From Tribonema minus (Eukaryota; Sar; Xanthophyceae; Tribonematales; Tribonemataceae): a DNA stretch of 64,000 nt. The stretch spans positions 496,001 through 560,000 of the forward strand of contig JAFCMP010000412.1 of assembly GCA_017506865.1 (NCBI GenBank), in the 5' to 3' direction. Positions 3,362-63,792 of this stretch are shown here, one piece after another (positions within the stretch are counted from its first letter, which is position 1; each line of letters begins with the position of its first letter). The position numbers and the translations under genes were made by a program. Under the pieces are notes generated by a model. It was not told where the DNA came from. It did no database searches and saw only the letters and a program-made list of their open reading frames with translations.

Positions 3362-6300
3362 TTATGTGGCGCCGAACGCGTGTTTGACTACAGCGGCCAC
3401 GGCATGCGCCGCCGGCGCTGCATCCGCCGCAGTCGTCTTGATGACCACGTCGAGCGCGCAGCTCGACTTTAACAATGTGCACTGCACCAGGTGGACCTCG
3501 GAGGGGTTATCGGAGCCGTAGCCGTAGAAAAAGAACCGCATCGTTTCCGGCTGCGAGAACAGAGTTAACAGCGATGGGCCCAAGTGAGGCGTCTGCGGTT
3601 GGCTGTATTCGTAAGTTTGAAGTGTGTGCAGTAAGGCCCACATGTGCCATTGCGAGTTTGGGTGCTGATCACAGCGCATGAGTGCATCAGGTGCATGACT
3701 GCAGCTGGCGCGATGCGCACAACCGTACCAACTATGAGGAGGCAGCTTCGATGATGACACCATGCTTTTGTTCCAACAACACAAACAAAACGACATACTT
3801 CTATGTACCATCCGGGATCACCTTCAAATAGCAGATCCGCAAAACATGATGCATTGCAAAACATGATGCATTGCAGCATATTTTGCCACACATTACATTG
3901 AGTCCCTTGTGACAGCATGTAGAAGTACCAAATGCACCTAACCTTTGCGCACGCATGGCGTTCTCATGTGACATAATTCATGGGCATCTGCGCTGACATG
4001 TCCAAATACTCTTACTTACAAGTCCGTGTGAAATAGTGTAGTGAACAGAATCACTACTTGAAATATGCGTGACACACATATGGCACAACGTGCCACACGA
4101 TTCATACGCGATGTTACTGGCCGCTCTTTGCCTGTGACTGAAGGCCGCGCCGCACGTAAGCAGCATACAATAGGTGCCCCAGCTTCTTAGAAGGCTTGCT
4201 GACGTGCTGGTTTTCACTCGTCTTGGATATCTCATAGCAATTCACCACTACTCATCTTGGATATCTTATAGCAATTTACCTGGTGCATACCACTTGCGCC
4301 ACCAGCCCTTGTGATAACATGCTGCTGCTAGAGGCCTCTCAAGCATCACGGATGGCCAACTTCAAGTTCCCGCATTGATCAACTTCAATTATGTGTACCT
4401 CCATCTATTCAAATGACATGCCGCCCTTCAACTTCCCCTGAGCATCGCGCCGCCAAGTTCAAGTGCAATGACCCAATTCAACCTCACCTTGTCGCCGGAG
4501 GCCATCGTCCGCAGGCAGGCAGCGCTCATCCTCCCCTCCACCTCCCCCGTCCCCGCCGGCGCGCGCAGCACCACCCCCTGCACCACCGCCGCCTCCGCCA
4601 GCTCCCCCCACAGCGCCTGGAACTGAGGCGCCCCCATCGCCGGCCCCGGCCGCAACACCCCTCCCCCCCCTTCCCCTTCCCCTCCCCCTCCCCCGCCATT
4701 CGCCGCCTGAGCGCCAGGGTCCCCATCGTCCATGCCCAGCAGATCCACCGACGGCGCAGCGGCAGCAGCAGCGGCAGCGGCGGCGGCGGCGGGCGCGTGC
4801 GCTGCCCCGGGCGAACCTGCGCCGCCGCTGTCGTGGGACTGCTGCTGATGAAGTTGAGGTTGAAGTTGAGGTTGCGGCGACGGCGGAGGCGCGAGCCCCA
4901 GGTCCGCGAGCTCGCGCGCGAGGCGCGCCTCGGGGGGCATCCACGGCGGCGGCGCCGCGCGCGCGACGCGGTACGGCGGCGCCGTGAATGCATCGCTCGG
5001 CTCGCCGTACGCGACCGCGAGCGTGTTGAACTCTGCGAAGATCGCGTCGCGCAGCGACGTGTCGCGCTCCTCCGCGAAGGGGCCGTCGAGCGCGGCGGGC
5101 GGCGCCGCGGCGGCGCCGGCGGCAGCGGCGGCGTGCTCGCCGCAGATGACGGCGCGCGCGGCGTCCGCGTCCGCGCGCAGCAGACGGTAGTAGAGCAGCG
5201 CGCGGTCATGGAGGTCCTGCGGCGGGGTGCGGCGAATGCGGTTTGGGGGTTGAGTGCGGGTTCGTAGACGTGCTGGTGAGGGTGGACAGAGGTAGCTTCT
5301 CTCAAGTGGTGCGGGTTGAGTGCGGATGTATAGATGTGGCAGGTGAGGGTGGACGGAGGTAGCTGCTCTCAAGTGCTGCGCTGGCAGCCCCAACGGCGGC
5401 CACACTGTGAATGAGGGTACGAATCAGCAAGCTGTAGTACAGCGCGTCTGCTACAGCCTGGTTCAGCGATGAACCGCGCTGACAGCCAGTCACATACTGA
5501 GCCCAGCACCGTGTTACAGCAATTCCAATGTACTCTGTACGAATAAGGGACAGTTACGGATTTCAGTTATTTCGGTTACGCACCTGGCTGGACACGTCCT
5601 CGACCGCCGCGGCGAGCAGCCTGCCGAGCATCGACTGCACCTCTGGCGGGCGCGCGAAGAAGAGCTTCATGGCGGCCGTCAGCAGCTGCAGCTTGACCTC
5701 CACGTTGGTCTCCTCTTCATAGGCATCTGCGACAGCGCGGCGGCGGCGGCGGCGGCGGCAGCAAAGGCGGCGGCGGCAGCAATGTGCTGAGCGTTGTGGT
5801 GTGGCAGCGTGCGTCATCAAAGTGCTTCCGAGGGGTGCACTATGTCACGTGGAGGAGCGCTTGTGCGTATGCGCGCGCACGAATGTGTGTGCGACAGGGC
5901 GCGATTCATGAATTCACGACATGCATTCATGACTGCAGCCGCATTGACACGAGTGCAGGGCATACAGAATATCATGTAAGGCCCAGTTGAAGCAGATTGA
6001 ATTGAGGCAATCAACATCAACATCTCAGCAATATGCGGTCTGGCAATCGTTCGTACCTATGAGAGGCTCCAGCATGTATGGCGCTTCTGGTATTTCAGCC
6101 CCATATTCCCCGACCATCCATATGAGCGCTGCCTTCCCTGCCGGTTCATCGCCCGCGCGCTTGAGACATCGCCGCAGCGAAGGCAGCACCTGTGGTTGTA
6201 TGAAGCAATTGGAAACATGAGCTTTGGCGCGTATTGCCAGTGCGTTGCGGGGGTACCCTTTTCAAAGTGTTGTGCACCGCCACATGCGCTGCTGCTTGCG

Positions 6301-9300
6301 CAAAGGCCGCAAAAACACATGAGTATGCCATAGTGGAGCAAAGCCATGGCATCACTACCTGTTGATTGTACATTTGTTTTCGAGAGACCAGTGCAGTGAT
6401 TGCAGCACTTGTAGCACCAGGGCATATCATGCTCTATGCACAACGATGCCACTCAAAATGCCACGGCAGCACATATATGCTATGAGCTGTACTGTACAGT
6501 CGTTGCTGCAGCTGAGAGCTGGCATTGCAGCCATGTCAGTCTTTTTGGTGCCAAACTGGACCATACTGCATACTTAACACAAGGTTATTGAGGCCAGTAT
6601 ATATTCGTTTCCATATCATGCCACACATATGCACTGCAACTGCGTCCACACAGCGGATGCGCTGACAGCAGCAGCGCAGCAGCGCATGAGCAAAGTGCGC
6701 CTTTCACAACACTAAGCACAATCTCCATCCATATGCACTGCAGCCAAAGAGATGCTGAAGCAGCATCGATCGGTGCGTTAAAGCTGAGCGCTGATGCCGG
6801 AGCTGCCAACAGCAGCAGTGCTCAGCAGCAACGGCTCTGCGGCTTTACGCCCAGCAAGATCAACGCAACCAGGCCCTCAAAACCTAATGCCGTGTATCAC
6901 TCGAGTGGCAGCACACTGCCGCGCGTGCGCAATTGATCGCTGCCGCGTGAGCTTGATGGCGCCACGAGGGGTGTGTATCGCTGCAGCAAATGCTGCGCCG
7001 CCGGCGCCGTCTCTGCCTTGCCATGTTCCGGGCCTACCTCCAGGAACGCAGCAGGTAGCACAAACGATTCTACGCACCGCGCTTTCCACTCGGGCCAGCA
7101 ATCGACCATCTAAATTGATGCCTTGCGCTTGCCGAGTCGCAGCGCACTGCCGAGCGCGCAGACGATGCCCCAAGAGTATGGTCATTTCCTGTCTCACGTA
7201 AAGAGCTGAATCGCCTTGTCTGATCGCTTTGCTAGTTGATACTGTGATCGCAGTACATGCCTTGTGTGACGGTTGCCGTAGTTGATACTTTAATGGCAGC
7301 ACGTGCCTCCAAGGTCACGCGACGCGGGTACGGGTAACCCTAACCCTAGCCCTGACCCTATTCCTAACTCTAAACCTAGCTGCTACTCATATCGCACGTG
7401 CCTGCTCGCGCCACGCGGCGTACCGGTAGCCCTAACCCTAACTAACCCTAATCCTAACCCTAACCCTAGTTGCCACTTAAATCACAGCACGTGCCTGGTC
7501 GCGCCATGCAGGATACCGCCGCAGCAGATCCTGCACCGCCAGCGCCGCCTCCGCCCTGACATACCCCGCATCCACCTCCAAGAACTCCAGCAGGTGGCCC
7601 ATGCCGAGCGAAGCGCCCTCCGGCACCCTGTGGCATATCTCGCCAATTGCCTGCGCACGCACGCACAGTTGCAGTTGCGGTCAAGAATGGAATGGCGCGC
7701 GGTGACATGGCCATACGATATGATGGCCCGTGGCATTTCTCGCCCATGGTCTTCATGCACGGATGCGCAGCCACAGACCGCGCTCAGGCATGGGAGGGGT
7801 CGCGGTGACGTGGCCATACGGTATGGTACCCTGTGGCCACAATATATGATGACCTGTGGCATATCTCGCCTGGTGACTTTGCGCACGCATGCGCAGACAC
7901 AAAGCGCGCTCAAGCATGGGATGGGGCGCGGTGAGGCGGCCGTGCGCTATGGGCATAAGCTCCACGGTGCCGCTTCGCCGCAGCAACAGGCAGTCCTTGC
8001 CCTCATGACAGCATATTTGCATATCCGCATACCCTCTTCTACTCTCATTACGATATCACAACTAGCTTACCTACCGCAAAGCATCAAACATACATACTCT
8101 CACGGACCGCCGCGCGAGGTCCGCATTCCCTCCCCCCCCCCCGCGCACTCTGCCAGCTCCGGCAAAGCACCTCCGCCGTGCTCGCCCGCCTACATACCCT
8201 CATGATATAGACATACCCTCATGGCATAATACATGCATACCCTCACAGCATACTACACGCGGGGTTTGCGTCCAAGCCCCCCGCGTACTCCGCCAGCTCC
8301 GCGAGCACCTCCGCCGCGCTCGCGGGCCCCGCCAGCAGCTCCACATTGCATACATACCCTCATGGCATTACCCTCTTTGACCCTTGTTAAAGCTGCACAC
8401 CTAGCATACCTACCCTAAAGCAGACATACATACCCTCACGGACTGCCGCGCGCGTCCGCGCCCCCTGCATACTTCGCGAGCACCTCCGCCGCGCTCGCGG
8501 GGCCCGCCAGCAGCTCCACATTGCATACATACCCTCATGGTATATACATACATACCCTCCCTCTCCCTTGCCCTTACTAAAGCTGCACACCTAGCATACC
8601 TACCCTAAAGTCAGCACTAATGCATACCCTCACGGACCGCCGAGCCATGTCCGCGTCCGCGCCCCCCGCGTACTCCGCCAGCTCCGCCAGCACCTCCGCC
8701 GCGCTCGCGGGCCCCGCCAGCAGCGCCAGCAGCTCCACCTTGGCGCGCCGCACGTGCGCGTGGTCGTTGTGCCGCGCGTAGAACAGGCGGTACTCGGAGT
8801 CAAACACGCCCGCGCGCCGCTGCGCGAGGATGAGCACGTGCGCCAGTACGCAGTGCACGGTCTCCGGCGCGGCGCCGGCGGTCAGCGTGAGCAGCGGCGC
8901 GCGCGCGCGCTCATAGACCTGCGGCGCGCGGCGGCGGCAGCGGCGGCGGCGGCGGCGGGGCGGTGTGAGAGAGGGGGACTGCTGATGGTGCGCGTGCGTG
9001 GTGAGCAGGCAGTGCTCAGAGGCGAGGGCGATCACGTGCGCCGGCATGCAGTGTGCACGGTCTCAGGCGCAGCACCAGCAGTCAGCGTGCGCCGCGGCGG
9101 CGACGGTGGCGGCAGCGGCAGTGGGAGTGATGTGTGATGGGAAGGCAAGCCGCCGGTAGTGCGCATGCGCGCGCGATGGCAAAGCTTGGAAGGACACTCA
9201 CTCTGACACTTGTGGTTAGAGTTGGGGTGTAGCAAAAGAGGCAGGCGCAGCCGAGGTTTCCCGCTGGCACTGCCGACAGGGAACATCTGCCAGAACCTGC

Positions 9301-12300
9301 AGTTGCGGGTGAGGTCGTGTGGTGCAGACACTCTTGCACACAGCAGTTGTGGGCAATTACTGAGTTATGCGCAGTGCCTGGCTCCGATGGCGCATTCATC
9401 ATGCCGCCATCGGGGTTGGACGTTCAATGGAGGGTAGGTTGAAGTTGGAATGTTGAACCTGAAGCGCTGAAGCTGAGCGGATTTCAGGTCAACTTGCTCA
9501 TCACGTATGCCCTGCACTGTGTCACCGTCACACTTTTCATGTGCCTAACTCTTGTCTAGATGGGGGCACGGCGCGTTCAACAACAGAAGGTCCAGCCAAA
9601 GAAAGCCGCGCGGGTCAGAGCCCAACTCTACTTCAATTTGAAGTAAGTGATCAAAGTACCACACTAACGCTGGCAGTGCTGAGCTCAGGCTGCAAGTCCT
9701 GGTTATGGCTACATCAGATTGTAAGCTCATGACTGAAGTGAATATTGAGGTTGGCAGCGCGCACCTGCGGTTGTAGATCTGGCAAGTCGCGCGTCAGGTG
9801 CAGGAAGCAGTCGATCACGGCCAGCACCACGCCACTGTTGCTGGTCCTCAGGACCTGCAGCCGCCGCAGGCACGCGGCATCACAGCACTTCTAATCAGCC
9901 TCAAGATGATATCAGCGGTAGAAAAGACAGTGACGCTCAAACAGCATCCATCAGCTCTTTGAGTTGACCGCAGACAACGGGCATGATTGCAGGGGGTCAA
10001 GATGACATTGGCGCAAGGAATCACGGTGACCTTCAAATCAGTCATGACATGACATTGCAAGCACAGGATAGACGGTCGTCGTTCCGGCGTGTCGGACTCG
10101 CAGCAGGAGTCACACGCTAAGTGACAAGCAACTTATGATGCCGCCAAAGTGGAATTGAGCTGTGCCGGGCATGTTGGGAAACAGCATCCACGCAATCACG
10201 CATGTCTTTCATCGCCAAGCCCAGCGACTCAATGCCCCAGGACCCGGCTTTATGAGCCTGCGCCGCATGCGGCAAACCAGTGAATGAGCTGAGCGCTGCC
10301 GCTCACCGGATCTGGCAGGTTTGTGATGCTGAACACATGAGTTGGGCGTTGCTGCTCACCGGATCCAGCAGGGTCATAATCAAGCCACTTGTTGAAACTC
10401 GTCAACGAGCCCAGTAGCGCGATCCAGCCCGATGGCCGGAGCCTAACCCTATACCCCAACCATAACCCGTACCCTAAGAAAGCAGCACAACATGACAACC
10501 TGAGCGCTGCTGCTCACTGGATCCAGCAGGTCCATGGTGCTAAACAAATGAGTTGAGCGCTGCTGTTCACCAGAGCCAGCAGGTTCATGATGCTGAACAG
10601 CTCGACCTCATCACAAGCAACGTTCGCTTTCTGGGCAGGAAGACTGTGCCACACGGGAAAAACAAAAGAAGCCAGTACAGGAGTTGAGCGCTGCTGCTCA
10701 CCAGATCCAGCAGGTTCATGGTGCTGAATAGCTCGTCCTCGTCTGCGGGCGCGTAGCGGCGCACCAGATCCAACAGGTGTATCATGCTGCCTCATCCTCT
10801 GTGCTGGACCAGCAGTACTCCTCAAATCACAAGCACGTAAAGTGAGCGCTGCTGCTCACCGGATCCAGCAGGTTCATCATGCTGAACAGCTCGTCCTCGT
10901 CCGCGGGCGCGTAGCGGCGCACCAGCGCCAGCACCTTGCACAGGCCCCACTCGCTGAACCCATCGAGGCGCCCCAGCAGCAGCAACACCGTGTCACGGCT
11001 CAGGCTCATGCCGCCCTGCGCCGCCGCCATCTCGTCCAACGCCAGCAGGCAGTTGGTCACCACCTGCACGTTGGAGTAGTGCACTGAGGGTTAGGGTTAG
11101 GTTTAGTGGACTGGGCGCCGTCCACAGCTGAGCAATGATGCACAGGCAAAGGGCGCGCTGCGCTGCCGCCATCTCGTCCAGCGCCAGCAGGCAGTTGGTC
11201 ACCACCTGCACATGTGAGGGTGGAGTACGGCGATAGGGGTTAGGGTGGGGTGAGGGAGCTGGGCGCCGACAACAGCTGAGCAATGATGCACAGGCAAATG
11301 CGCCCTGCGCCGCCGCCATCTCGTCCAGCGTCAGCAGGCAGTTGGTTCACGACCTGCGCGTGGAGATGAACAGCGGTGCGCTGATGAGCACGGGAACTGG
11401 CACAGCACCCACTTCTGGCGGCAGCACGCTGTGTCATTGCTCACGTGTAAGCCGCAGTGGCGCGCCGTCATCAACTGATCGTCCAGCGCCAGCAGACAGT
11501 TTGTCACCACCGCCTGTGTGCACGCCGCCGCCATTCCGGCTTCGCATCGTCCGCATGCGGCAATCGTGGAGCGCTGCTGCGAAGGAGCGGGTGCGTGGGT
11601 ACGCAGCGCCACCGGCGGGCAACGACGAGGCCTCCTCTCACCTGGGCGTCCACGTCGTGCAGCATGGCGTAGAGCGTGTCCACCATGTTGCCCTCGCGCA
11701 CGACGGCGGGCGCGAGGTGGTGCAACTTCAAGATGCCCATGACGCCTGTCTTGCGCACGTACGCGTTGGCGTCCGTCAGGCTGCGCCGCAGCGGCTCGCT
11801 GCCATGGGTAGGCAGGTAGGGGGGGGGGGGGGGTAACACCGAATCAGGGCTGCTGCTGCTGCGTCAAATGGTGGCAGGTATTCATGGCCTACATGTCTTG
11901 CATAGCGTGCGCGATGAGTTGCGCATCAGCAGGCCAGTATTGGCCGCCCACAACAGCGCTCATCTAATGTACGCCGCGATCATGCTCGGCAGGCGCAGGC
12001 TGCACAGGCTGCACAGCACACGCCCCGCACCATGAAAGGAGTATGATTTGAACCTATAATTGAAGTATACTTGAAGTACGCGCGCTCACCTGATGTACTC
12101 CACGATGCTCGGCAGGCGCAGGCTGCACAGGCTGCGCAGCGCAAGGCCGCGCACCATGGGGTCCTCATTGCCGCAGTCGCGCTGCAGCGTGTTGACGCAC
12201 ATGATGGCGAGGTCCGGGTTTGTGTGCGCGTACGTGCACAGGTACAGGTAGACCATCTTCTTGACCACGAGGTCGCGCGTCTCTATCGCCATGATCATCT

Positions 12301-13330: not shown

Positions 13331-16300
13331 ATGCAGCACGAGGTGCTGGCGGCGTGCCTGGGCTGCCCTGGCAGCGTCATCTGGGAAGATCCCACCTATC
13401 AGCCGCCCGGAACGCAGCGGCGTGGAGCCTTCAGAGTGTCGCAGGGAGCTGCCAACTCCTTCCTCTCAAAGGCGGAAGTGGAGCTCATCAACAGGGTGTG
13501 CGAGCTGGGCTTCTTGTACCGCCGACTGTCGCAGGTCTCACGGGATGCACAAGTGCCACATGCTGGGCCAGCAGAGGCCGATGCACCAGCCGACCCAGCC
13601 CTGCCCCCACCCTCCGCTGATGGCCTCTACCTCACAGCACTCAGAGCTGGCATCGAAGAGATGCTCGAGGAGTACGACACCACGGTAGCAGAGGTGGAGG
13701 AAGAGCTGGTGGGTGACCCGACACTTCCAGTCAGCTACATACAACACAGGCTGAGGAGCTATCTGCCGGTGTTCGGTGCCCTCGCGGCGGTGTGCGATGC
13801 CATTGTCAAGGAGGAGGCCAGGGGCGGGCAGCTGCTGCAGCTGCTGTACGACAGGTCGCGTGTTGGCGCGCCGGCGGTGCGGGAGCGGCTGCTGAGGCTC
13901 CTGTGGCACTGCCATCAGGTACGGCGACGCACGTCGAATAGCTGCGCAGAACAAATGTGCAGGGAAGATTAGCAAATCAGGTCCCTGACAACATACAGAG
14001 AAACTATCAGGATCAAGGCCTCTCAATTATCTGTCCGATACATTAGCAGCATGAGGTCTAAGCAAGGCTGCGGCTGCTGAGGGTCGCCTGCACTTGCGGC
14101 TGCTGAGGGTCGCCTGCACTGCGGCTGCTGAGGGTCGCCTGCACTGCCATCGATCGCTGCGGCACACCACTAGCCGAGCGCTCAATTTTGTATGGCGAGC
14201 TATTCAGGGGTAGCATATCTACCACATGTTGGTGGCGGGGAGCAGGTTTGCTCAGCTTGCGGTTGCATTGCCATTGCCATGCACCGCGGATTCACCACTG
14301 TGCTAGGCATGGAGACACTTGGCAGAATAGATTTGTCATGGGGTAGGTATTCTGAGGCACGGCAATACAGGCAAATTGCGTTTCAGCTGCGACAGCGTCA
14401 TCCGACTCAGAACTGAACGCCCTTGCTGATGAAATAAATGCCGTATGGAGTGCGCGGTTACTGGAGGTGATGCTCAGCTGGGTGGGCCGCAGCGTGCGCC
14501 TGTTGTGCGCAACAGCCCTCATACAATGTTGACGGTACCCAGCAAGCACAACCGCCCTCAAGGAACAACCGGGATCCTGCTCTGTGTTTCTAGCAACAAA
14601 GGAGCATGCGAACAAGCTTGCGATGGCTATTCTGCAGAGCGCCACAAGTTCAACCGTGCACACCGCAACTGCTATTGGCCGTGGAACCAGTGCAGATCTT
14701 CACACTGTTCCATGCCGGTGGTGCCATGGCGCAGGTTTTCTTCAACCAGATCGCGGCGTGGTGCTTGTATGGGCAGCTGCTGGATCCCTACAAGGTGAGC
14801 ACTGTCGCACCAGCAGCAGCACCACCAGCAGCAGCAGCAGCAGCAGCAGTAAATGAGGTTGGACCACGTGCCACACCCAATGCGTGCACATGATGAACTC
14901 TTCGTTGAGCCATATGCCAATTGATTTGTGCACTCTCGTCATGGTTGAGACTCTGCCACAGCTCATCTGATGCTGCACTACCTGAGCTACCGCTTTTGCG
15001 TGCCATGGTGACTGGGCCCTCAATCAGTGCTGCTACTGGTGTGTACATCGTATCAAACGACGGCATATACCGCTTGTATGCGGAAGTTTCTCCCAAGGTA
15101 CTGTCGGTGGCGCCATCGCCTGAGCACTGCCGAGACGCGCTGCATACTGTCCAAGTGCAGTTTGTGCGGTGAGTGCAGCACATGCATCGCGTCTGAATCG
15201 TCGCGCCACCATTGCCACAGCAAGTTGCCACCGCTCACGCGGGGCATGAGCTGGCGGCAGACTGCTGAACAGAGTGAGAAAGTCTGAACTAGTCTCAGCA
15301 GGCAGAAGTGCTCTTTGGACACACATGGACTGCCCTAGTCCGCCCCCCCCCCCCCCGCCCCCCGCCCTCCTGCAAAGGATTTCTTCAGAGAGCACTGCCT
15401 GCATCACGGCGCAGCTGCTGCCGCTGTCGGCGCCACCAATGCCATGGAGCGCTGCTGGGACGAGGAGTACCCTCTTTCAGTCAGCACTGCATTTACAATC
15501 GCAAACCAACCACTATGCCGCCCCCCATTGTGCAGGAGTTCTTCATAGAGCACTGCCCATGCCACGCCACCGCCGCCGCCGGCGCCGCCGCCGACGCCGC
15601 CGAGCGCTGCTGGGACGAGGAGTACGTCGTCGCGGGCGGTGCGACAGGGCAGGGCGCAGCCATGCTGCCGGCGCGCTACTTCCCCGCGCAGCTCGCGCAG
15701 CGCGTGCTGTTTGCGGGCAAGGCGGTGCGCGTAGTGTCGGAGGGGGCGGCACGAGGGGAGGGGGAGGGGGAGGGGGAGGGGGAGGGGGAGGGGGAGGGGG
15801 GGGGGGGTTGCCTGGCGCCGGCGGAGGTGGCGCGGTTTCTGGAGGCCTGGGGGGGGGTGAAGCGGCGCGAGGAGTTCCACCTGCTGAGCGTGCAGGCGGC
15901 GATTGACCACGTGAGTGCGCATGAACTTCAACTGCAACTGTCGGGCCGCCGTGGCGCGGCGGCGTTTTTGCGTCGAGTCGGAGGTTGGGCGTTGTCCAGT
16001 GATCTTGGAATTGTGTCTGGTAGGCCGTGGTGGTGAAGCGCAGGTCAGTGAGTGCTAGTGAACTTCAACTTGAACTGTTGGGGCCGCCGTGGCGCGGCAT
16101 CGTTTTTCCTGGGTCGAATTGAGGTTGGGCGTTTTCTAGTGGTCTTGAGGTTGTGTGTGACAGGCCCCGGTGATGTCACACAGGTCCTGACTGTTGGTCA
16201 ACACGCGAGTGCTTAGGGTTACCTAGGTTTAGGTCATCGACTGCCGCAACCGCCAAAGCCGCTGCGGCGCGGCGGTAATTGGCAGTGGATGGCAGGTGGT

Positions 16301-19300
16301 GCTGTGTCAAGCAGTGGTCTGCGAGCAATGTGCGACGCGGTCTGGTGGCGTCGCACACGCCCTGATGTCACTGGCCGCGGCGTCAGCATCGCTCAACGCC
16401 GCATTCAGTGCTCAGCATGATTACATCACCCACGCAGATCCACGCCGCCGCGGCGCGCCGCCTCTGGCGCCTCGTCGTCCACCGCGGCCGCCTCCCGCTC
16501 CACCTGAACGCGATCCACGACTACGTACTGCTGGCGCGCGGGGACCTCTTCCACGCGTTCCTCAGCGCGGCGCGCAGCACGCTGCGCGGCGGCAGCGGCG
16601 GCAGCAGCAGCGCAGCGCCAGCGCCGCAGGACGTCGCGCGGCTCGCGCGCGGCGCGCTGCGGCAGGCCGCGCGCGCATGCGGCGCGGACGACGACCCGCT
16701 CTTCGCGCGCGTCGCGCTCGCGCTCGACTTCCCCAGCGTGCGCTGCGCGACGCTCGGCGGCGCCGACGCCGCAGCGGCGTTCTCGCTCGCCGGCGGCGCC
16801 GCGCACGACGCCGGCAGCGCATGCGTCGCGCTGTGCAGCGGCGTCAGCAGCGGTGACGGCGGCAGCGGCGGCGGCAGTGGCGGCGGCGGCGGCAGCGCCG
16901 GCGCCATGTGGTACGCGTCACGGCGCGACATCGGGGGCGCGTTCAGCACCAGCTTTGCGTTCCGCCACTCCATCGACGCAGCGGCAGCGGCAGCGGCGCC
17001 CAGCGGCGGCAGCGGCAAGCGGCCGCGGCAGCCCACCGGCGGCGTGTCACTGGTCCTGCAGGGCGCGTCCGCGCGCGCGCTGGGCCGCGGCGGCGGCGGT
17101 ATGGGCTCTGAGGGCATCCGCGGCAGCGTTGCGGTGTGCCTGCAGCTGTGCGGCGCGAGTGCGCTGCCGCCGCCGCAGCGGCCGGCGGCACCGAGCGGCG
17201 TTGGCGGGGTCGACGCGTCGGCGCGCGTCAGCACGGCCAGCTGGGTCAGCGGCAGCACGCGCAGCAGCGGCGGCGGCAGCGGCGGCGACGGTCACGCCGT
17301 TTTCATCAGGACACAGGCGCCTGGGCAGGCGGAGGGCGAGGTGGTCGCGTCCGCCGTGCTACCGCGCGCAGCGCTCGACGGCGGCGGCGGCGGCGTGACG
17401 TTCGTGCGTCTGGACTGCACCGGCGGCGGTGGCGGCGGCGGCAGCGGCGGCGGCGGCGACGGCGCTGCGCAGCAGTGGCGGCTGCTGCGCATGTACGTCA
17501 ACGACCCTGAGGGCCGCGGCGAGCCCGCTCTCGAGGCCGACGTGCCGCTGGCAGCGCTCATCCCGAGCGCTGCTGCGGGCGATGGCGGTTACGTTGGCGT
17601 AACTGCCGGGGGCCCCCCGGGTCTAGGCGTGAGTGTCGTGCAGTGGGCGTTTACGTGCGGCGGCGGGGGGGGGGGGGAGGGGGGGGCGGAGCCGGTGGGG
17701 GCGCGGTGGGAGCAGCTGCAGATTAGCTATAGGCTGGAGTGGCCGTTGCACTTGGTGCTGGGCGGCGCTGCGATGGCGGAGTACGGGCGGCTCTCGGCGC
17801 TGCTGCTGCACGTCAAACGCTGCTCGATGGAGGTGAGGGGTGACGATGACGACGTGTTTGAGCAGCTGTAAATGTCTGGAGTGTGCAGCTTCAGACTATT
17901 GTCGGATGTCGATTTTTACCAGCGCACAAGCATCTATCAGTAGCAGCATCCTGCCACCACCAGCTGCAGGCATGCACGTAGGTACATATGCTCCCAAAGA
18001 GGACCAGGTTTGACCAGGTCTCAAGACCTGCGATGCTTTGCTCACCAACTCTTGCCAGTGATGGATTTGCGGTATCACACATTGCCGACCGTATACACCT
18101 CAGTGCTAGATGTGTGAATACAAACTTACCACGACCTGTACATCGCGACCTGCGGCGGCGGCGGTACCAATGGTTACCCTTGAAGTTGACCTTGAAGTTG
18201 AGGCTGCTGGGTTCAAGCAGGAGATGGCGGTGCATGTCCTGCAGCTCTTCAGCGCAGCTGCGCATTACGGCCCACATGTGATGACTGAGTTCAACCGTGC
18301 ATTGGCGTTCTGTCGCTCAGGTGGACCAGTTGTGGCCGCTGCTCATGCATCCGCGCTTCCGCTCGCCGGCGCCCGCGGCGCGCCCGCAGCTCGCGCAGCT
18401 GTGGCGGCTGCGCGCGATGATGGCCTTCTACACCACCAACCTGCACTACTACCTGCAGGTACTGTTACACCGAACAATCAAGCCCACCAAACATCAAGCC
18501 CTAGAATCAGTCCCAGTCGAGACCAATATAAATTAGAAGTATACAACGCGTAGCTGGCGCAGCTGTGGCGGCTGCGGGCGGTGATGGCTTATCACACCAC
18601 CAATCTGCACTACTGCCTGCAGGTACTGTTGGACCAAACATCAAGCCCTACTAGCCCTAGCCGACTTTCTATTCAGGTTCAACTACATAGCAAAGCGGCT
18701 GTGGCGGGCTGCGAGCGGTCGAAGACTTGTGCACCGCCAACCTGCTCTACGACCTGCAGGTACACAATCTAGGGCCAGCATCTCATGAACAAAACGACAC
18801 GTTTTGACATGCGTTTATATGTTCGTCGTCCAGTGGTGCGGATGAACTCTCAGCAGGCGGCGCGCGCGGCGCTGCGCTGCGGCTTTCGCGGCGCCTGCTG
18901 CCATGCGCGCTGCAGGTTTCTGTACGCCCCACACCCCTCTAACCCCGCCCTTCTCACACAAAGCGACACGCCATTGACAATCCATAGGCCACGCACGCTC
19001 ACAAAGCCGCACTCTCCTACCCATGGCTATGTGGAAACACATGACAAAAACACTCAAGTGTGCACTTGCTGTACTCTAAGCTACATGCATACTCCCTGCC
19101 GCTGGCGCAGGTCGACGTGATACAGGCGGAGCACGCCGCGCTGCGCGCCGCGGTCGCCGCGGCGACGGACTTCGGCGCGGCGGCGGCGGCGGCGGCGCGC
19201 TGCGCGGCGCGGCTCGCAAGGCGCGCGTTCCTCACGTCGCGCGCCGCCTCCGCAGCGCTCGCGGCGCCGCTGGCGACGTGCCTGCGGCTGTGCGCCGTGG

Positions 19301-47400: not shown

Positions 47401-50400
47401 GTGTGCGCATGATGCGCGGGGACAATGACATGTGTGTCGTGATTTCAGCTCTTTGACCGGTGACCGCGTTCGCCGCAGCCCGTGGCACAGCGCGTATAGC
47501 TTGATGCATAATGAGGTCGGGGTCATGCTGAGCACTAATGCGTCACGGCATGCACCTGCCGTGACTTTGGGGTCCGCTTGGGTCAGTTGGTCGCCCACCT
47601 CTGGCGCGGTGGTGAGCTATGCGCTCTCAGGGGATGGCGGTTGTCATTTTGCACCGAGTGCTGACAAGGCGCGGGGATATTGACACTGTGGTCATAATTT
47701 GTGCCAGGTACAGTGAAATTGGCATGCTGTCGTTAGTCCCTGGCGTGATGGTGATGGCCGAAAGGCGGCGCGTTGCGGCAGCGCACAGCCAGGTAACAGC
47801 AGCGCACACGCAGACAGCAAGCGCTGCTCGACTTGATGCTTCTGTTGGATGCAACGTCACTTACGAGTGTGAGAACATGGCGTCGACAACAAGTTGAGGG
47901 TTGGAGTAAGGACTAGGGTACCATTGTCAGCACGGCGCAGCGCCGGCGCCGCGCTTTGTGGGATATAAGGCATGCGGCTAATGGCGTCAGGCCATGTACA
48001 TGAGCCATAAATTGAGAATGCTATGTTGTGTTTTGTGCTACAACGCCATGGCAGCTTTGGCTCTGCGTCAGGTAGGTGTCGTGGAGTGTTCAGCCGATAC
48101 ATATGCCATGCAGTACAGGGGCACCCTCAACATCTCAAGAACATGCATATATAGGTGCTCCTTGAGTCGTCGACCGGACTGCACGCCAACGGTGTGATGG
48201 TGTGCAAAAAAAGGTATGCAGCGGCACGCAACGGTGAGCAGTGGCGACGGTCAGCAATGGCGCGCACCAACAACACCAATGTCTATTGACAACAACTCTC
48301 AGTTTACTTGAGTCTCAAGGGCAGCGGCGGTACCTGGCATGAACCACCCTGCTGTCTTGCGGTAGCCGGTGTGGCACGAACGCCCCCCCCGGTACTCTGC
48401 AAAGTCGTTGGGGGCGCTCTCCCTCACCACCGCGACGGCGTAGTACTCCACGCCATCGCTGACTTCAGATGTGGTCTGCTCGGCGCTCACAACCTGGCGA
48501 TCACAGTGCGTGACACATGGTGTTTTTTGAGAGGGAAAAACATCAAATGTACTTTCAGAAGCTGGTCTTTTCCGGTCAGTATTTGGCATCCGAACGACAA
48601 ACGCGCCAAAGGCCTTGTTTAGCTCTCCCTTCGGATGTCGTCTGCGCTCACAACCTGGCGATCGCAGTGCGTGGCACATGGTGCTTTGAGGCGTGCAAAA
48701 CGTCAAACGTATTTGCGGACGCCGGTCTTCTTCCAGTTAATGATTGGTATCTGACCGTCAAATGCGCCAAAGCACTTCAATTTTTTTTGAAATCGTCTGC
48801 TCAGCGCTCTCTTGACCTGGCGATCAAAGCGCACAGCATGAAGTAATACTCTGTTGTGTATATGTATGTATATGCTTTGCGGTGCCGTGCCACACCTCAA
48901 CATTGATGTGTATGCCTTTGGGGTGACGATCCACACCTCAACACGCGTTGAGGTCAGGTCCTGACATGCCTGGCCTCGTGCAGGTTCTCCTGCTTGCGTC
49001 TCAGTGATCACTTCTAGCGACACGCGTGGCAAGCACAGGCGTTTGTTCTTGCGAGTCACAGATCATGATGGAGAACCGTGAGCCGAGCACTGAGTGAGAG
49101 TGAATACGACGCACACGGCGGCAATCGGTTGAAACATGACTGCAGCACCTGCACACTGTACCGTTGAACGCAGTAAACCACCGACAAGGCATAGAAATGG
49201 TGATAGAGCCTTTTTGTCAAGTCTTATTGTGAAGTATCCATCATCTGGGCCGCGTTCAGATGCATCATATGCACGCGCCTGTGTACATCAACACTGTGAT
49301 GGGCGTGCCTGCACACCGTTCTGCTGCGCGCAGTCAACCGCCTGCCCCCTTGCCCGAGCATGGTGTCAGTTTGCGCCAACCATTGCATCGATCACCTGGG
49401 CTGTTCTGCGCCCTCATCGAGACGCAATCGTGTACCGTGTATTGGTGACATCAATTAAAACGTGATCAGCATTGGCGCACCTGTACGCCATACTGCTGCG
49501 CGTAGTCAAACACCTGGCCTCGCCTGAGCATAGTGCATCAATCGTCTGGGCTGTGCCCTCACCAAGATTCGATCTTACGATGAAAATGACAAAGTTACAA
49601 TACTTTTTTGAAGTATACTACTTCACAAGTACACACCTAGCAGTAGAACTTTGTTGAACGGCATTGGCGCACTTGTACGCCGTACCGCTGCGCGTAGTCA
49701 ACCACCTGCCCCTTGCCTGAGCATTGTGCACCAACCATTGCATCGATCAGCTGGGCTGTTTTGCGCCCTCATTAAGAGTCAATCATGTACCGTAAATGGC
49801 AACATCAACTAACACACGATTGGCGCACCTGTATGCCGTACTGCTGCGCGTAGTCGAACACCTGGCCGCCGTCCAGCGCCACCAAGTCGACGGAGCCCGC
49901 CGACATGGCGACCATGCAGTCGTCGAGGTTGCCGAGCTGCGCGCACGCAAACTTCAACTTCAACTCATTGGAGACCATGGCGTTGAGCGGCCGCGCCAGC
50001 GACGTCAGGCACTTGCTGTGCTCCTCGTCTGTGGTGGTACTGCCGAGGCGAGGGGAGTGCAACAACCTTCAATTGAATAGTCTGTGCGAATGCTGCCCGT
50101 GGCATATAGGGGTAGGGGATCAGCGTCCGTCCAATGGTGCAGAGCACCCTGCATCACATGTACTGCAGGGCAGCGTTCGAGGGGAATGCAACGAACTTGG
50201 GTGGAATCATCTGTGATGCTGCCCGTGGCATACAAGGGCAGGGCCAGGCTCAGTCCAACGGCGCAGAGCACCACGTGTCACGTAGGGCAAAATGCAACAC
50301 GCCGAGGAGCGGTGCACAAGTGTATCGCTGCAGCAGCGCTCGCCACCTGGTGACAAAGAGCTGGCGGGCACGCTGCCGAAGGACATGCGGAAACGTCACG

Positions 50401-53400
50401 TGTGGTGCCAAAATTGGTGTTTAACGTTTTCGATGACTTCATCGACCTATGGCATAGACAGCTATGCTGACGTTGCAGCTGTGAGCGCAGTCACCAATAC
50501 GCGGCAGCGGAGCCAACGATGATCGCATACACCTACAACAGCTCCTGATAATCCCATGAACTACGCACACACGCAGGCTCCGTCAAACAGAACACTGGCC
50601 TACACGTTCATTGGAGTGCAGCACGCAAGGCAGCGGTGCGTAAAACGCGCAGCACGCTACACGGACAGTATAGTGCAGCGTGCAATGGAGTGGTGCGCAA
50701 GTTGTACTGCTGCAGCAGCGCTCACCACCACTTGGCAGAGGATCTAAGGGAAGGGCACAGCATCTGTGTTACGCATGGTGCCGAAGTCTATTTCAATTGA
50801 TCATGAGCTTATAAAACCATAGAAATGGTTTTGCTGGTACCGTAAACTACACATGCAGACAGGCTCCACCGAACAGCCCAGTGCAGCACACGTACTGAAC
50901 TGTGTAGCATGCAAGTACGCAAGTGTACTGAACAGTGCAGCACGCAAGTACGCAAGTGTACCGCCGCAGCAGCGCTCACCACCACGTGGCGGAGGAGCCC
51001 ACAGGCACGCTGCCAAAGGGCACAGCGTCGGTGTCGCGTATCGCGCCGAAATTGTCGTAAGACGAGCCCATGAAGCCACGCACGCTAGCGGCGGCCGCCT
51101 GCAGTCCCACCATCTTGGAGTCAAAGAGGAGGCCGTCGGCATTTGCGGCGTCGCCATAGAAGAGCGCGGCAAAGCTGGGCAGCAGCGAGGCTTCGACGAG
51201 GTCGGCCTGTTTGTGACAGTTGAAGTTGAAGCGCGCATGCAGGCTGCGGTTCAGAAGGTGGGGGGGAAGGAGCTAGACTACTGCATGTTGAAGCGCTCTT
51301 TGGTATCACCTGTGACGGGTGAAGTGCAGGCGCAGGCTGCGGTTCAGAGGGTTTGGGAAGGAGCTACTGCATGTTTGCTATCACCTGTGACAGTTATTGT
51401 GCGTGTGCAGGCTGCGGTCCAGAAGGATTGGGAAGGAGCTACTGCATGTTTACTGCTGGCACACGGAGAGAGCCTGGCCGTCAACCAGCTACTATAGTCA
51501 CAACCACCGCAACCCTACACCTAACCCTAACCCCAATCCTGACAGGCATCCCCATATGCACCCACCTGCACGGCCGCAATGTTGCCGGGCAGCATGTCGG
51601 GAGTGGTCACGACGATGTGCGCCGGCACAACCGCCAGGTTGCACGTCGTGTACTCATCTATGGGGGCCAGGGCAGCAGTGCTCCCCGGCGCGCAGAGCAG
51701 CTGGTACTCGCCCGCCACCTCAGGGGGTACCGTCCCCTCCTTGGTGAAGGCGACGTCGCACACGCCGTCTTGCAGGCACTGGAAAGACCCCGCGTAGTCC
51801 TGCGCAGGAGGGCGGGGGGGGGGGGGTCAAGGGGCGGGGGGGGGGGGGGGGGGGTTAGGAGGGGCAGCGATGGGGCTGAGCGGTGCGAATGAAGCTTCTA
51901 GAAGCGGCCTTTCAGGCGATTGCAGAACTCAACAAAAAGCAGTAGTTACCCTCCAGGCACCACCAAAAATCATATCGTACCTTCATCAGATGGTGCAAGC
52001 GTTACCGCTCAGCGCCTGTGCGGCAATTTTGCAGTGCTCAGCAAGGATGCAGAGTGCAAGAGGCGCGCGTGTTTTTAACTGTTTCTTAATTATCATGAAA
52101 AACTTCTTGGTCAAAAATGTAAAAAAACTAAAAGTTTTGAAGTGCACTCCCCCGGCGCTCGCCAGAGCGCTGCCATGGTGGAGCGCTGCTTGGGCCTTTA
52201 GCCGCGCACTGTGTGCAACGATGCACACATGCGCAAACGCATCGTTGCACACAGTACGCAAACGACTTGAAGTGGTGCTGTTGTCGCTGCATTGGTCTGC
52301 CTTCGCACAGCAAGTCTACCTGCTGATACATGTTGCAAACTGGATACATCGAGCCGCCTCTGCACGCGCAGTGCGGCACGCTTTGTCTGTTTGCGGGGAA
52401 ACAGTGCAAAGCTGACACTATGCTGCAGCAGCGCACAGTCAACAGCGATTTTGCAGCAGCGCTCGGCTGGCAGCACATCATCTCCCTCGCCCGAAGGCGA
52501 GCGAGTCACGGACACAACTTGAAGTATGATCGATCAATCAATACCTACGTACCACCGGCCTGGTGCGGCAATCAATACCTACATACCACTCGCCTGGTAC
52601 GGCTCGTCGGCGTCCTGCGTGCACACGCGCTGCAAGTTGAAGTGTACTCAATCAGTCGATACCTACATACCACTCGCCTGGTACGGCTCGTCGGCGTCCT
52701 GCGTGCACGCGCCGGCGCACGCGTCGCAGATGGCGCTGACGCCGTCCTCCGCCGCGCCGGCGACGCCGGGGGCGCAGCTGCCGCCAAAGAAACCCTTGAC
52801 GGCCTCAATGTCGTTGGGCATCGTGCTGTTGGCGTCTGCAGACGTGAGGACACCGGCTTCGAGGAGCGCGCCGACGGGCATGAACCAGCCGGCCGTCTTG
52901 CGGTACCCTGTGGGAGGGGGAAGAGGGGGGGCGGGGGGGGGGAGTTCAAAGGTAGAGTTGGCTAGGGGGTTTGCTATGGGCCATGATCAAGGTGGTTGGG
53001 GGGGGGGGGGGGGGCTTGAGGGGTAGAGTTGGCTAGGGGGGTTGCAAGGGGCATGTTGATAAAAGAGGTGGTTGTGGTTACGGGGTGAACAACGGGTCTT
53101 GTCCCCTCCCCAGACTTTTGGCAGGAGCGCGCCTGCTGGTGGCGTGACAGTGAAGCAGCCGCACGACTTGTGTTGTGCCGTTGCAGAGCTCAGCAGCATT
53201 TGGGTCAGACGCGGCACAAGAGGTGATGCCACGAGCCTTCAGTCTGTTGTTGTTGCCGGTACGGATGCGCGTGAGTTGAAAGCAGCAGCGCCCGTTGCAC
53301 GCTGAGCATTGCTTTGTTGCCATCGTTTGCAGATGCACAGCTACACTTGCAATGCGCACCCATTGTGGTTCTTATATGCAATGCTCAAAATGAAATGGTA

Positions 53401-61400: not shown

Positions 61401-63792
61401 CGCCATTGCTAGCAGTGGTTCCGGAGGCGGTCGCGGCGACGCACGCCAGCAAGCGACAGCCGAGCCAGCGTGTGCACTGCCGATGCAGCACAGGATACAG
61501 CAATGCTCAGCACTATTGGGTGCGGCGCACCTCTTGCCCTCGCCTTATTCTGCGTTGGCAGCCAACGTTACGTGTAGCCACGGCAGAGTCTGAAGGGCAT
61601 TGTCAGTCACCGGCTTCCTTATCACCCGCAAGGCCATGTTGAAGCCCTTTTTGTGCATACTCGCGGCTCAGTAGTTGTGAGCCTGTACCTCGCGAGCGCT
61701 GCCGCACACTGTAGCCCACACTCCTGACAAGACACCAGTGGGACTTTGAAGTAGCGTGTACGCCTTAGTAGCGAGCAAGTTGCTCGGGGCAACAGCCTCA
61801 TTGTCCTTGTCAGTCCCGCAGCAAGTTCGCCTTGCAACAACATGATTTGAATCAAAACATCGTGTTCACTGGATGTGCAGCAAGTGGTGCTGAAGACGCT
61901 CTGCGTCTCGCAGCAAGTTGTCCTATCAACAACATGATCTTAATCGAAATACATTGTTGTCACTGGTGGTGCAGCAAGTGGTGCTGAAGATACCCCGCGT
62001 CGTTTTACAACCTGATTTCAATAACAATCAGAGTATTGTGTTCACTGGTCCTGCAGCAAGTGGTGTTGAAGATACCTCGCGACGACGCGCCGCGCACCTC
62101 CGCCAACGACCTGGAGCTGGAGATGGTGCTGCTCAAGGAGCTGGGCCACCCGAACATATGTGAGACGAGCCACAACTGCTGCGTTGTACTCCTCATGGAC
62201 TTGTACTGCCGTGTACTACACCTTGTACTGCCGTGTACTGCACCTTGAATGGTCATGCTACAGTACACGACGTTGCACGCAGCATGAATCCTAGTGCTGT
62301 AGCTCCGACGTTTCAACTATCAGTACCGCTGTGCAGTACACCTGCACACTTCATTGTAGATGTACCTACAGAGGTGGCGTAACTCCTCGAGGCAGTGCTC
62401 CCCCCCCCCCCCCCCCCTAGCACTTGTGAGATGACTGGCTTAACCTTGGCGCCATAAGCGAACACTTCATGCTAACCCTAACCCTCACCCTGCAGCAACT
62501 TCAGCAACTCCACAGCCACATTGAGGCAGCTTATTGCAACAGCACATATCGAACAATCAAAATCAGCATCTGTGAAGGCAATGGTCCACTCTCGCTTTTG
62601 AAACAAGATTCTTCTCACTGTGAAGCGCTGGTCTGCATTCTCCGGGATGAAAGTGGGAATGGTGCACTTCACTTACCAATGTCGCCTGTTCTTGGTTCAC
62701 AAACCTCTTCGTTTTCACATTTTCAAAGTCGTAGTCCCCGCCCCCTCCCCCTCCCCCTCCCCCTCCCCCTGTTTGTTGTGGCACCGACCGGCGCATTGAT
62801 TCAATCAGCGCATCTGGGACCAGGGTTCTCGACACCAGGCCCATGCGCTTCTTCCTAGTCCTCGTGCCCCCCCCCCCCCCCCCCCAAATCTCGCATCAGG
62901 CTAGGGTATTATAAGGTTTGCGTGCGGGACCAGGGGCAGCATTACCAAGACGTGCCCCCCCTCATGACACTTGCACTTGCTGCGCGTTCGCAATGCAGGC
63001 GCCATGATGTTTGGAGGCAAGACGCCAACGGGCACTCCATTCATGGCTATGGAGCCGTTGATGGGCGGCAGCCTGACCAAGGTGGTGGACAACATGTCCA
63101 GATTTGCGCCGTGGACGCAGGTGGGCGCGCAAACTAAGTAGGGCTAGGGCTTGGGGTGGCAGCAGACTGTTGCCCTGTGCATTTGCCGCGCCTGCTGTAA
63201 ATGCAAGCTGATGGACGATGCGCCGACAGTCCGCGAGAAGGAAGGCGCGCCACTAACAAATGTCAGTCGCAGTGTGGCCCTCCTGCTGCAGTTTGTACGG
63301 GTCTGCATGTGTACTGTTTACTAATTCTCGCTCAGGGCGCGAAACAGCCCAGATGAATGGCATCTAAGTTGAAGCTTGCTGTACGGAATCTACATGTCGT
63401 GTGACAGTCTGAAAGTGTCTCAATGACAACCACTCAAACGCCGCCGCCGCCATATGGCATCGCGTATAGAAGTATGTACTTCTATAGGCCCTGAGGGAGT
63501 CCCTACGTCGGGTGCGCTCTTGTGGTCCGCGGCCTATGCTGCACCCCAAGACCCTCAGTAGATGCTTGTGTCGCAATGCGGCCCAACATGTGCGCCCCAC
63601 GCGTGTGTATGCCACAACAGGTCCTTTACTTGCTTCTCTCTTGCGTAGAAGTATTTAGGGTATGTTTACCCGAGTGACCGCGGCGCTCATGGCTCTAACT
63701 TGATCTTGCTCTGAACTCCCCCTTGCAGGGCCTGCATTACGCACGCGACATCGCATGCGCCTTTTCCTTCCTGCACGAGGAGGCGATCGCAG
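58406..63792 (+). CDS. Protein kinase, 3' end beyond window
   Basis: Exons supported are 58406-58650, 58862-59097 (or to 59115), about 59860-60454, 62057-62159, 62999-63120 and 63729-63792; the gene runs off the right edge. The first 300 or so residues are Ser/Ala-rich without a known domain. The kinase domain starts in the third exon: EYMTCGAMCNIYTARWHGK replaces the usual glycine-rich loop and lacks the normal GxGxxG. It is followed by QVVLKIPRDD with the ATP-binding Lys, LELEMVLLKELGHPNI with the helix C Glu, FMAMEPLMGGSLTKVVDNM (hinge) and ARDIACAFSFLHEE (helix E). The catalytic loop lies past the window. The style resembles algal tyrosine-kinase-like kinases. The reading frame shifts once between about 60150 and 60290 in a G-rich run, by an indel, a sequencing error or a tiny unseen intron. 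Confidence 0.82.
60543..60920 (+). repeat. Donor-edge copies of kinase exon 3
   Basis: After the true donor at 60455, copies of the exon end (CNIYTARWHGK) lie with GT donors at 60588 and 60743, and a third strongly decayed copy near 60902. Spacings are 133, 155 and 159 bp. Confidence 0.9.
61813..62056 (+). repeat. Acceptor-edge copies of kinase exon 4
   Basis: Copies of the exon start (QVVLKIPR) preceded by a GCAG acceptor lie near 61872-61900 and 61967-62000, with shorter CAGCAAGT fragments near 61817 and 61910; the true exon starts at 62057. Confidence 0.88.
62400..62417. repeat. C homopolymer in kinase intron
   Basis: Eighteen C on the coding strand. A second run of about nineteen C lies at 62867-62885, and CCCCCT units at about 62738-62770, all before exon 5. 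Confidence 0.9.

What the first reader, a model, noticed from the sequence alone, without database searches (positions are those of the whole stretch)
6190..62160. Introns built from serial decaying copies of the adjoining exon edge and its splice site
In AP-4 beta, GCP4, the DHHC gene, both Cys-rich genes, transferrin and the kinase, introns hold repeated partial copies of the neighbouring exon boundary. Copies after an exon carry its 3' edge plus donor; copies before an exon carry its 5' edge plus acceptor. Copies usually decay with distance from the true exon. This is not the pattern of transposon-like introners, which are not derived from the host exon. It suggests a local, repeated boundary-duplication process that lengthens introns and leaves ladders of cryptic splice sites. 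I know of no described mechanism that fits exactly; novelty is my inference.
Basis: partly seen in the sequence, partly recalled or inferred. Interest (0 to 1): 0.93.

Follow-up and report, generated by a model that had tools for sequence, protein, structure and literature searches.

The report
Exon-edge duplication ladders in introns
In this genome, perhaps a green alga's, many introns carry rows of worn, same-direction copies of the neighbouring exon border about 160 bases apart, apparently left by local tandem duplications that hit exon-intron borders more often than the rest of the intron.

Summary
In four multi-exon genes (60 curated exon edges), 26 edges have at least one copy in the adjoining intron, 55 copies in all. 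Shuffled introns give none, reverse-complement copies occur at 0 of 60 edges, and the intron at the exon's other end holds one in 1 of 52. The median step is 158 nt. All 30 ladders in the curated genes contain or lie within 32 nt of an exon edge.

The border preference survives removal of exon bases: the first or last 85 nt of introns have outward copies at 25 of 60 edges, against a mean of 0.22 for interior draws; uniform tandem duplication simulates as 0.25 versus 0.24. Fifteen other genome stretches with predicted exons repeat it: 24/148 against a stretch-matched 13.9, sd 3.4.

Copies look like near-neutral debris of local tandem duplication, not introners. Decay with distance is not diagnostic. 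None of 16 high-identity pairs is full length, so the process looks old and episodic. A duplication crossing an intron-exon border is in print (PMC4974935); junction-biased ladders were not found in ten searches. Why borders are preferred is unresolved.

The parts
10860..11063 (-). AP-4 beta exon with ladders on both sides
   Evidence: Cnd1/Adaptin_N Pfam matches in this gene; sequence read
10274..10780 (-). Donor-edge copies of exon 10860-11063, at about 95, 158, 289, 342, 500 and 553 nt from the true donor, most keeping GTGAGCAGCAGCGCTCA or a near variant
11112..11511 (-). Acceptor-edge copies of exon 10860-11063 at 142, 290 and 441 nt
   Evidence: stretch 11064-11641 matches only itself and its own exon in the genome
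8057..8559 (-). Donor-edge copies of AP-4 beta exon 8628-8918
7708..7952 (-). Acceptor-edge copies upstream of AP-4 beta exon 7498-7650 (3' end of this exon uncertain)
11956..12034 (-). Donor-edge copy of AP-4 beta exon 12090-12409; exon part 95% identical over 45 nt, following intron not homologous
18549..18763 (+). Two donor-edge copies of GCP4 exon 18321-18458
15376..15470 (+). Acceptor-edge copy of GCP4 exon 15536-15910
15911..16186 (+). Two-unit tandem array (step 137) starting at the donor of GCP4 exon 15536-15910; no exon part
22523..22895 (+). Three donor-edge copies of ankyrin exon 22377-22442, containing most of the exon but not its acceptor
21976..22397 (+). Tandem array (step 164) running into the acceptor of ankyrin exon 22377-22442
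23018..23522 (+). Three acceptor-edge copies upstream of ankyrin exon 23655-23819
23954..24180 (+). Two donor-edge copies of ankyrin exon 23655-23819 (176 and 356 nt)
24241..24740 (+). Three acceptor-edge copies upstream of ankyrin exon 24750-24899 (170, 338, 480 nt); unit is about 96 nt intron + 72 nt exon
24966..25329 (+). Three donor-edge copies of ankyrin exon 24750-24899
26628..26678 (+). 51-nt copy of the 3' edge of exon 26434-26524; the intron after it is not homologous
45426..45950 (-). Four donor-edge copies of transferrin exon 46056-46200 (161, 315, 473, 617 nt)
46321..46781 (-). Acceptor-edge copies and array upstream of transferrin exon 46056-46200
48629..48772 (-). Acceptor-edge copy of transferrin exon 48382-48493 (a second copy lies at 321 nt)
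49299..49734 (-). Donor-edge copies of transferrin exon 49829-50039
50306..50742 (-). Donor-edge copies of transferrin exon 50980-51206
52515..52628 (-). Donor-edge copies of transferrin exon 52667-52907 (this donor is uncertain)

Best explanation
The ladders are debris of local tandem duplications of mostly 120-215 bp (median step 158 nt) that fell on exon-intron junctions more often than elsewhere in introns. Each event copied part of an exon, its splice site and some adjoining intron in direct orientation. Most likely (inferred) it arose by fill-in and end joining of staggered breaks, which leaves a direct duplication with or without filler. Only events that leave the mRNA intact survive (inferred): the outer copy becomes intron, so copies sit on the side of the edge they came from. 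Freed from coding constraint, the copies decay almost as neutral sequence, while the true exon changes mainly at silent sites. New events on old ladders give higher-order repeats, such as the paired donor copies at 10289-10591. Few or no events are recent. Shown: local, direct, side-specific copies; step size; edge enrichment without exon bases; near-neutral decay; no relatives of the one ladder intron searched alone. Inferred: the break-repair chemistry and why junctions are preferred. A chromatin cause, with breaks set by nucleosomes positioned on exons, would fit the step size but was not tested.
For: Direct against inverted pairs 79:3 and 85:1 within 1.5 kb. Own-side copies 26/60, reverse complement 0/60, intron at the exon's other end 1/52. 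Step: 55 first distances and increments, median 158, IQR 134.5-191, 75% within 120-215; the window and sample lags together also peak at 120-200.

Edge bias: 25 of 30 ladders contain exon and the other five start 1-32 nt from an edge. Uniform-duplication simulations of introns averaging about 875-890 nt give edge-containing ladders 0.40-0.49 and within 32 nt 0.46-0.59; a first run gave 0.43-0.52 and 0.54-0.61. Exon-free test: first/last 85 nt of introns 25/60; in the introns of at least 355 nt 0.46, against interior draws mean 0.22, sd 0.048, max 0.37 of 300; uniform simulation 0.25 against 0.24. Replication in 15 other 10-kb stretches, predicted exons, exons that are themselves copies dropped (7 of 139), interior positions matched by stretch: edges 26/148 and exon-free 24/148 against mean 13.9, sd 3.4 (0 and 5 of 2000 draws reach them); at stricter exon scores 22/115 and 22/115 against 10.1, and 17/78 and 15/78 against 6.1.

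Near-neutral decay: 44 copies, 145 silent and 181 replacement differences, 30 frameshifting gaps. In 15 of 26 nearest copies the intron part is homologous too (z>=4), as a true tandem duplication requires; there the exon part is a median 84% identical and the intron part 74%. Nineteen pairs in the window have alignment length of at least 0.9 of the lag.
Against: In 10 of 26 nearest copies the intron part shows no homology (z<2), including two whose exon part is 95-96% identical. These are not simple tandem duplications and need filler DNA, deletion or a different process. Only 1 premature stop in 44 copies and AG kept in 18 of 19 acceptor copies look high for pure neutral decay. In the sample stretches, the test of whether ladders touch a predicted edge is weak: 24 of 35 against null 18.7, sd 2.5, max 25. 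GCP4 shows little exon-free enrichment (2 of 10 edges). Exon borders are predicted or curated, not transcript-based. Microhomology and breakpoints were not measured systematically, and nothing shows which repair enzymes acted.
Confidence: 0.55

Rival explanations
1. No junction bias. Introns were once short (about 130 nt), so nearly any tandem duplication of about 160 bp had to include an exon edge; a burst of untargeted duplications lengthened them and decay followed.
For: Burst simulations from 130-nt introns give edge-containing ladders 0.82-0.97, within 32 nt 0.85-0.97, edges with a copy 0.47-0.55 and with two or more 0.26-0.35, close to the observed 0.83, 1.00, 0.43 and 0.27, and they reproduce the lack of full-length high-identity pairs.
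Against: A burst simulation of this kind predicts copy-free introns of median 110 nt and length-copy correlations of 0.91 and 0.98. Observed: copy-free introns (9 of 30) have median 527 nt and the correlations are 0.47 and 0.49. Searches with 30 kb of the window showed only one large dispersed repeat that could have lengthened introns later, but they scored only part of the candidates and skip common words. Very old, fully decayed copies could also have lengthened the introns; that is not excluded.
Confidence: 0.2
2. A splicing- or transcription-linked process targets junctions directly, for example RNA-templated repair or R-loop breaks at splice sites, copying the junction itself rather than a random segment that spans it.
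For: Edge bias without exon bases; ten nearest copies have no homologous intron part; two copies end at or within about 8 nt of the donor (sequence).
Against: At least 15 of 26 nearest copies carry intron homology as well, which needs a DNA or unspliced-RNA template; no mark of RNA intermediates was tested.
Confidence: 0.15
3. The copies are kept because they work, as alternative exons or as decoy or back-up splice sites.
For: AG kept in 18 of 19 acceptor copies and only 1 stop codon in 44 copies.
Against: GT is kept in 28 of 37 donor copies, with identity at those two positions (0.86) similar to neighbouring positions; 30 frameshifting gaps in 44 copies and a silent-change share (44%) near the roughly 40% I expect if only the true exon is constrained.
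Confidence: 0.07
4. The introns are introners or other mobile elements.
For: Many introns in several genes are affected.
Against: Ladder intron 11064-11641 matches only itself and its own exon in 158 Mb; 30 kb of the window yields one large dispersed repeat, at about 26895-27453, besides telomeric, low-complexity or short matches, with only 39 of 199, 18 of 19 and 39 of 206 candidates scored; the copies match the neighbouring exon.
Confidence: 0.02

Closest known systems
[quoted passage not shown] passages and Results section read)
   Same: A tandem duplication of the 3' side of an intron plus the 5' side of the next exon; a second, 83-bp tandem duplication lies within an intron of the same gene.
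   Different: There the duplicated exon part is spliced as a new exon-intron unit; here the copies lie inside the old intron, are often serial, and occur on donor as well as acceptor sides.
Growth of new introns by repeated staggered double-strand breaks in Daphnia pulex (PMC4202315; passages read)
   Same: Direct repeats inside introns and of the terminal exon bases, read as footprints of staggered breaks that passively lengthen introns; 55 of 90 new introns have internal repeats.
   Different: Exon-derived repeats there are 4-12 bp, in newly gained introns; here aligned copies are about 30-80 nt and more, in steps near 160 nt, and I did not test whether these introns are new.
Direct repeats near intron splice sites (PMC11782384; abstract read)
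   Same: Direct repeats near intron-exon borders, attributed to break repair on insertion.
   Different: Repeats of 4-30 bp, interpreted as marks of intron insertion.
Small tandem duplications by CST-Pol alpha-primase fill-in at staggered breaks (PMC8355091; passages read)
   Same: A tested route from offset nicks to short tandem duplications.
   Different: Shown in mouse and human cells at Cas9-made breaks, for example with 43-bp overhangs; the passages I saw make no link to exon borders.
Introners (PMC9860276; passages read)
   Same: Add intron sequence in many genes; many families are biased toward nucleosome linkers.
   Different: Introners are dispersed related elements; these copies derive from the adjoining exon and, where tested, are locus-specific.

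Membership tests
Intron change by local tandem duplication | Direct, nearby copies at the same locus | tested here: met
   79 direct against 3 inverted pairs; 85 against 1 within 1.5 kb
Intron change by local tandem duplication | Whole unit (exon part and intron part) duplicated | tested here: inconclusive
   Met in 15 of 26 nearest copies, not met in 10, one between; 0 of 16 pairs at 88% identity or more are full length
Intron change by local tandem duplication | Ancestral state without the duplication in relatives | not testable with these tools
   No relatives of this genome are held
Rogers-type intron gain from a duplicated exonic AGGT segment | Intron sequence derived from the exon on the far side of the new intron | tested here: inconclusive
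   Copies were found to match the exon on their own side (26/60); whether they also match the exon across the same intron was not tested separately
Introners | Dispersed related copies at many loci | tested here: not met
   One ladder intron alone has no relatives; searches show one large dispersed repeat, outside the ladders, with part of the candidates scored
Introners | Target-site duplications or terminal inverted repeats | not tested
   No formal test made on the ladders
Staggered-break footprints | Filler DNA or microhomology at junctions | not tested
   Suggestive single cases only (11956-12034; 26628-26678); no systematic breakpoint analysis

The most novel reading that the evidence does not exclude
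A mutational process in this lineage specifically duplicates exon-intron junctions in steps close to a nucleosome repeat. Introns then grow from their edges, and much of what now looks like unique intron sequence is older copies decayed beyond recognition.
Probability: 0.3. Interest if true: 0.85.

Novelty: new variant of a known kind. Interest (0 to 1): 0.6.

Why it matters
How introns lengthen apart from transposon insertion is poorly resolved (my own view of the field). If local tandem duplication prefers exon-intron junctions, introns can grow from their edges and are seeded with decoy splice sites beside real ones. That makes intron growth datable copy by copy and links gene structure to a mutational bias, perhaps set by chromatin or transcription. 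It also warns gene finders that exon-like, splice-bearing copies next to real exons may be debris.

Tried and rejected
Chance: rejected by resampled-sequence and shuffled-intron controls. Introners and other mobile elements: rejected for the ladders on the searches made; the stretch 26895-27453 is a separate MITE-like repeat. Alternative exons: not favoured. A gradient of decay as proof of ordered growth from the exon: rejected as not diagnostic. A mobile element or break site marked by the motif ACTT(G/C)AAGT: the flanks printed share no obvious consensus; left as an aside. Telomeric tracts as a mark of repair in ladders: 5 of 13 tracts in spans that make up 20% of the window, several in one array; too few to claim anything.

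Methods that failed or were replaced: a first exon HMM over-predicted and was retuned. An earlier, less sensitive exon predictor gave 12 of 35 sample ladders touching an edge against null 7.2, sd 2.0, max 12. The predictor used later was trained on the 35 curated exons; by penalty setting it finds 23, 27 or 28 of them exactly and 32 by overlap. The sample tests (edges 26/155 against 63/1149; exon-free 23/148 against 55/820) did not drop predicted exons that are themselves repeat copies, and their interior positions overlap, so their Fisher p-values (3.6e-6, 8e-4) are nominal; redid them with both points mended and the ratio fell to about 1.7-2.5.

Rows dropped: pairs outside the five curated genes (9 of 85) were left out of the edge counts. 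Six uncertain edges stayed in the 60 (three of them with a copy) and were removed. Predicted exons lying wholly inside a repeat copy were dropped (4 of 64 in the window; 7 of 139 in the sample). Simulations assume unit lengths of mean 150-200 and sd 30-50, exon rate 0.3 or 0.05 of neutral and simple indels; other settings were not explored. The roughly 40% neutral expectation for silent changes is my own arithmetic from the 25% figure.

Literature: ten searches of open-licence papers only, mostly seen as listings; two returned no paper. None of the listings described serial exon-edge ladders, which does not prove absence.


Full report
What the window is. The window is G000:C412:496001-560000 of a 158.2-Mb genome in 554 contigs; the source is unnamed and no relatives are held. 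A telomere-like stretch of the window (about 7335-7468) matches the first 700 bases of four contigs, so the telomere repeat is probably TTAGGG. GC content and gene content would suit a green alga; the Haematococcus lacustris paper reports AACCCT telomere repeats and a 151-Mb assembly (PMC7617258, passages read). That is a lead only and I do not name the species.

Genes. Domain and structure searches support DNA primase large subunit (26-1215, +), AP-4 beta adaptin (-), gamma-tubulin complex component 4 (+), an ankyrin-repeat DHHC palmitoyltransferase (+) and transferrin (-). I curated 35 exons from homology, frame and splice consensus; PRIM2 has one exon, so the 60 edges and 30 introns come from the other four genes.

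The observation. Local similarity is almost entirely direct and near: 79 direct against 3 inverted pairs. Resampled sequence gives none. Of 60 curated edges, 26 have at least one copy in the adjoining intron, 16 have two or more, 55 copies in all, and 0 in shuffled introns; without six uncertain edges, 23 of 54. Donor-edge copies follow the exon and acceptor-edge copies precede it; reverse-complement copies 0/60; copies in the intron at the exon's other end 1/52. The clearest cases are AP-4 beta exon 10860-11063, with ladders on both sides, and ankyrin exons 22377-22442, 23655-23819 and 24750-24899. First distances and increments have median 158 nt, IQR 134.5-191, 75% within 120-215.

Is the exon edge special? 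A random tandem duplication near an exon would also copy its edge, so I compared with simulations and internal controls. In the curated genes 49 of 76 pairs include true exon, and 25 of 30 ladders contain an exon edge; the other five start 1, 10, 20, 28 and 32 nt from one. Random placement of the 76 pair geometries gives a mean of 19.2 edge-spanning pairs (max 30) against 37 of 64 observed in the same two classes. Uniform tandem duplication in introns of similar length gives edge-containing ladders 0.40-0.49 and ladders within 32 nt 0.46-0.59; five- to ten-fold edge bias gives 0.68-0.85 and 0.74-0.88. Exons are constrained, so their copies stay recognisable longer; I therefore repeated the test without exon bases. 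The first or last 85 nt of introns have an outward copy in 25 of 60 cases. In introns of at least 355 nt it is 0.46, while interior 85-mers of the same introns average 0.22 (300 draws, sd 0.048, max 0.37). Uniform simulation gives 0.25 and 0.24, and eight-fold bias 0.39 and 0.22. By gene, exon-free copies are at 7 of 16 edges (AP-4 beta), 2 of 10 (GCP4), 7 of 16 (ankyrin-DHHC) and 9 of 18 (transferrin).

Elsewhere in the genome. Fifteen stretches of 10 kb hold 35 ladders, in 11 of 15 stretches. With predicted exons, those that are themselves copies dropped (7 of 139), edges have outward copies in 26 of 148 and exon-free border sequence in 24 of 148; interior positions matched by stretch give 13.9, sd 3.4, max 25 of 148, with 0 and 5 of 2000 draws as high. 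At stricter exon scores: 22 and 22 of 115 against 10.1; 17 and 15 of 78 against 6.1. A cruder test, whether a ladder touches a predicted edge, is weak in these stretches: 24 of 35 against 18.7, sd 2.5, max 25; in the window it is 32 of 35 against 17.1.

What the copies are doing. Across 44 copies and 765 codons there are 145 silent and 181 replacement differences, 1 stop and 30 frameshifting gaps. With no constraint on either sequence 25% silent would be expected. If only the true exon is constrained I expect about 40% (my arithmetic); observed 44%. GT is kept in 28 of 37 donor copies, similar to neighbouring positions; AG in 18 of 19 acceptor copies. The low stop count and high AG retention are hints against purely neutral decay. 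Intron stretch 11064-11641 matches only itself and its own exon in the genome. Searches with 30 kb of the window found one large dispersed repeat, at about 26895-27453, besides telomeric, low-complexity or short matches; only part of the candidates was scored.

Age and order. Copies nearer the exon tend to be more similar (34 against 15 pairs), but simulated plain tandem duplication gives 10:5, 50:28 and 105:64, so the gradient is no evidence for ordered growth. None of 16 pairs at 88% identity or more and lag up to 260 nt (8 in the window, 8 in the sample) is full length, against 74-83% in simulations with steady births; burst simulations do reproduce this. The process was therefore probably episodic and is now quiet or rare.

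Short introns as the cause? If introns had been about 130 nt, nearly every duplication would have hit an edge, and burst simulations from that start fit most statistics. But such a model predicts copy-free introns of median 110 nt and near-perfect correlation of intron length with copies. Observed copy-free introns (9 of 30) have median 527 nt and the correlations are 0.47 and 0.49. I prefer edge bias in already long introns, without excluding the rival.

Mechanism. Fifteen of 26 nearest copies have homologous intron as well as exon, as a tandem duplication should; ten do not, two of them with 95-96% identical exon parts. The latter look like duplication with filler or later loss, for example 11956-12034 and 26628-26678. 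Fill-in and joining at staggered breaks could give both forms; it is tested in mouse and human cells (PMC8355091, passages read) and proposed for intron growth in Daphnia (PMC4202315, passages read). Why junctions are preferred is not shown. The step resembles a nucleosome repeat (general knowledge, not tested).

Known or new. Duplication across an intron-exon border is known as a single event in potato (PMC4974935, Results read). Ten full-text searches of the open library listed no description of serial, junction-biased ladders. I rate it a new variant of a known kind.

Noticed in passing
window 26895-27453: MITE-like element of about 558 bp with 34-bp terminal inverted repeats and dozens of related places in the genome, inside the intron after exon 26434-26524; separate from the ladders.
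   Followed up: partly
window, 66 places, e.g. 12069, 22907, 26539, 46274: The odd palindrome ACTT(G/C)AAGT and its variants are over-represented (TTGAAGTT and complement 46 against 1.5 expected), 36 of 66 in curated introns; density varies from 0 to 17 per 10 kb among sampled stretches.
   Followed up: partly
window 7335-7464, 11087, 25244, 27671, 27866, 29815, 31780 and others: Thirteen interstitial TTAGGG tracts of two or more units in 64 kb (2.0 per 10 kb) against 9 in 150 kb elsewhere (0.6 per 10 kb).
   Followed up: partly
window 10289-10591: Higher-order structure: a pair of donor copies 53 nt apart is itself duplicated at a lag of 211 nt.
   Followed up: no
L003, L004, L012, L014: Four of 15 sampled 10-kb stretches have no ladders; L003 and L004 are GC-rich (0.69, 0.64). 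Why ladders are uneven across the genome is unexplained.
   Followed up: no
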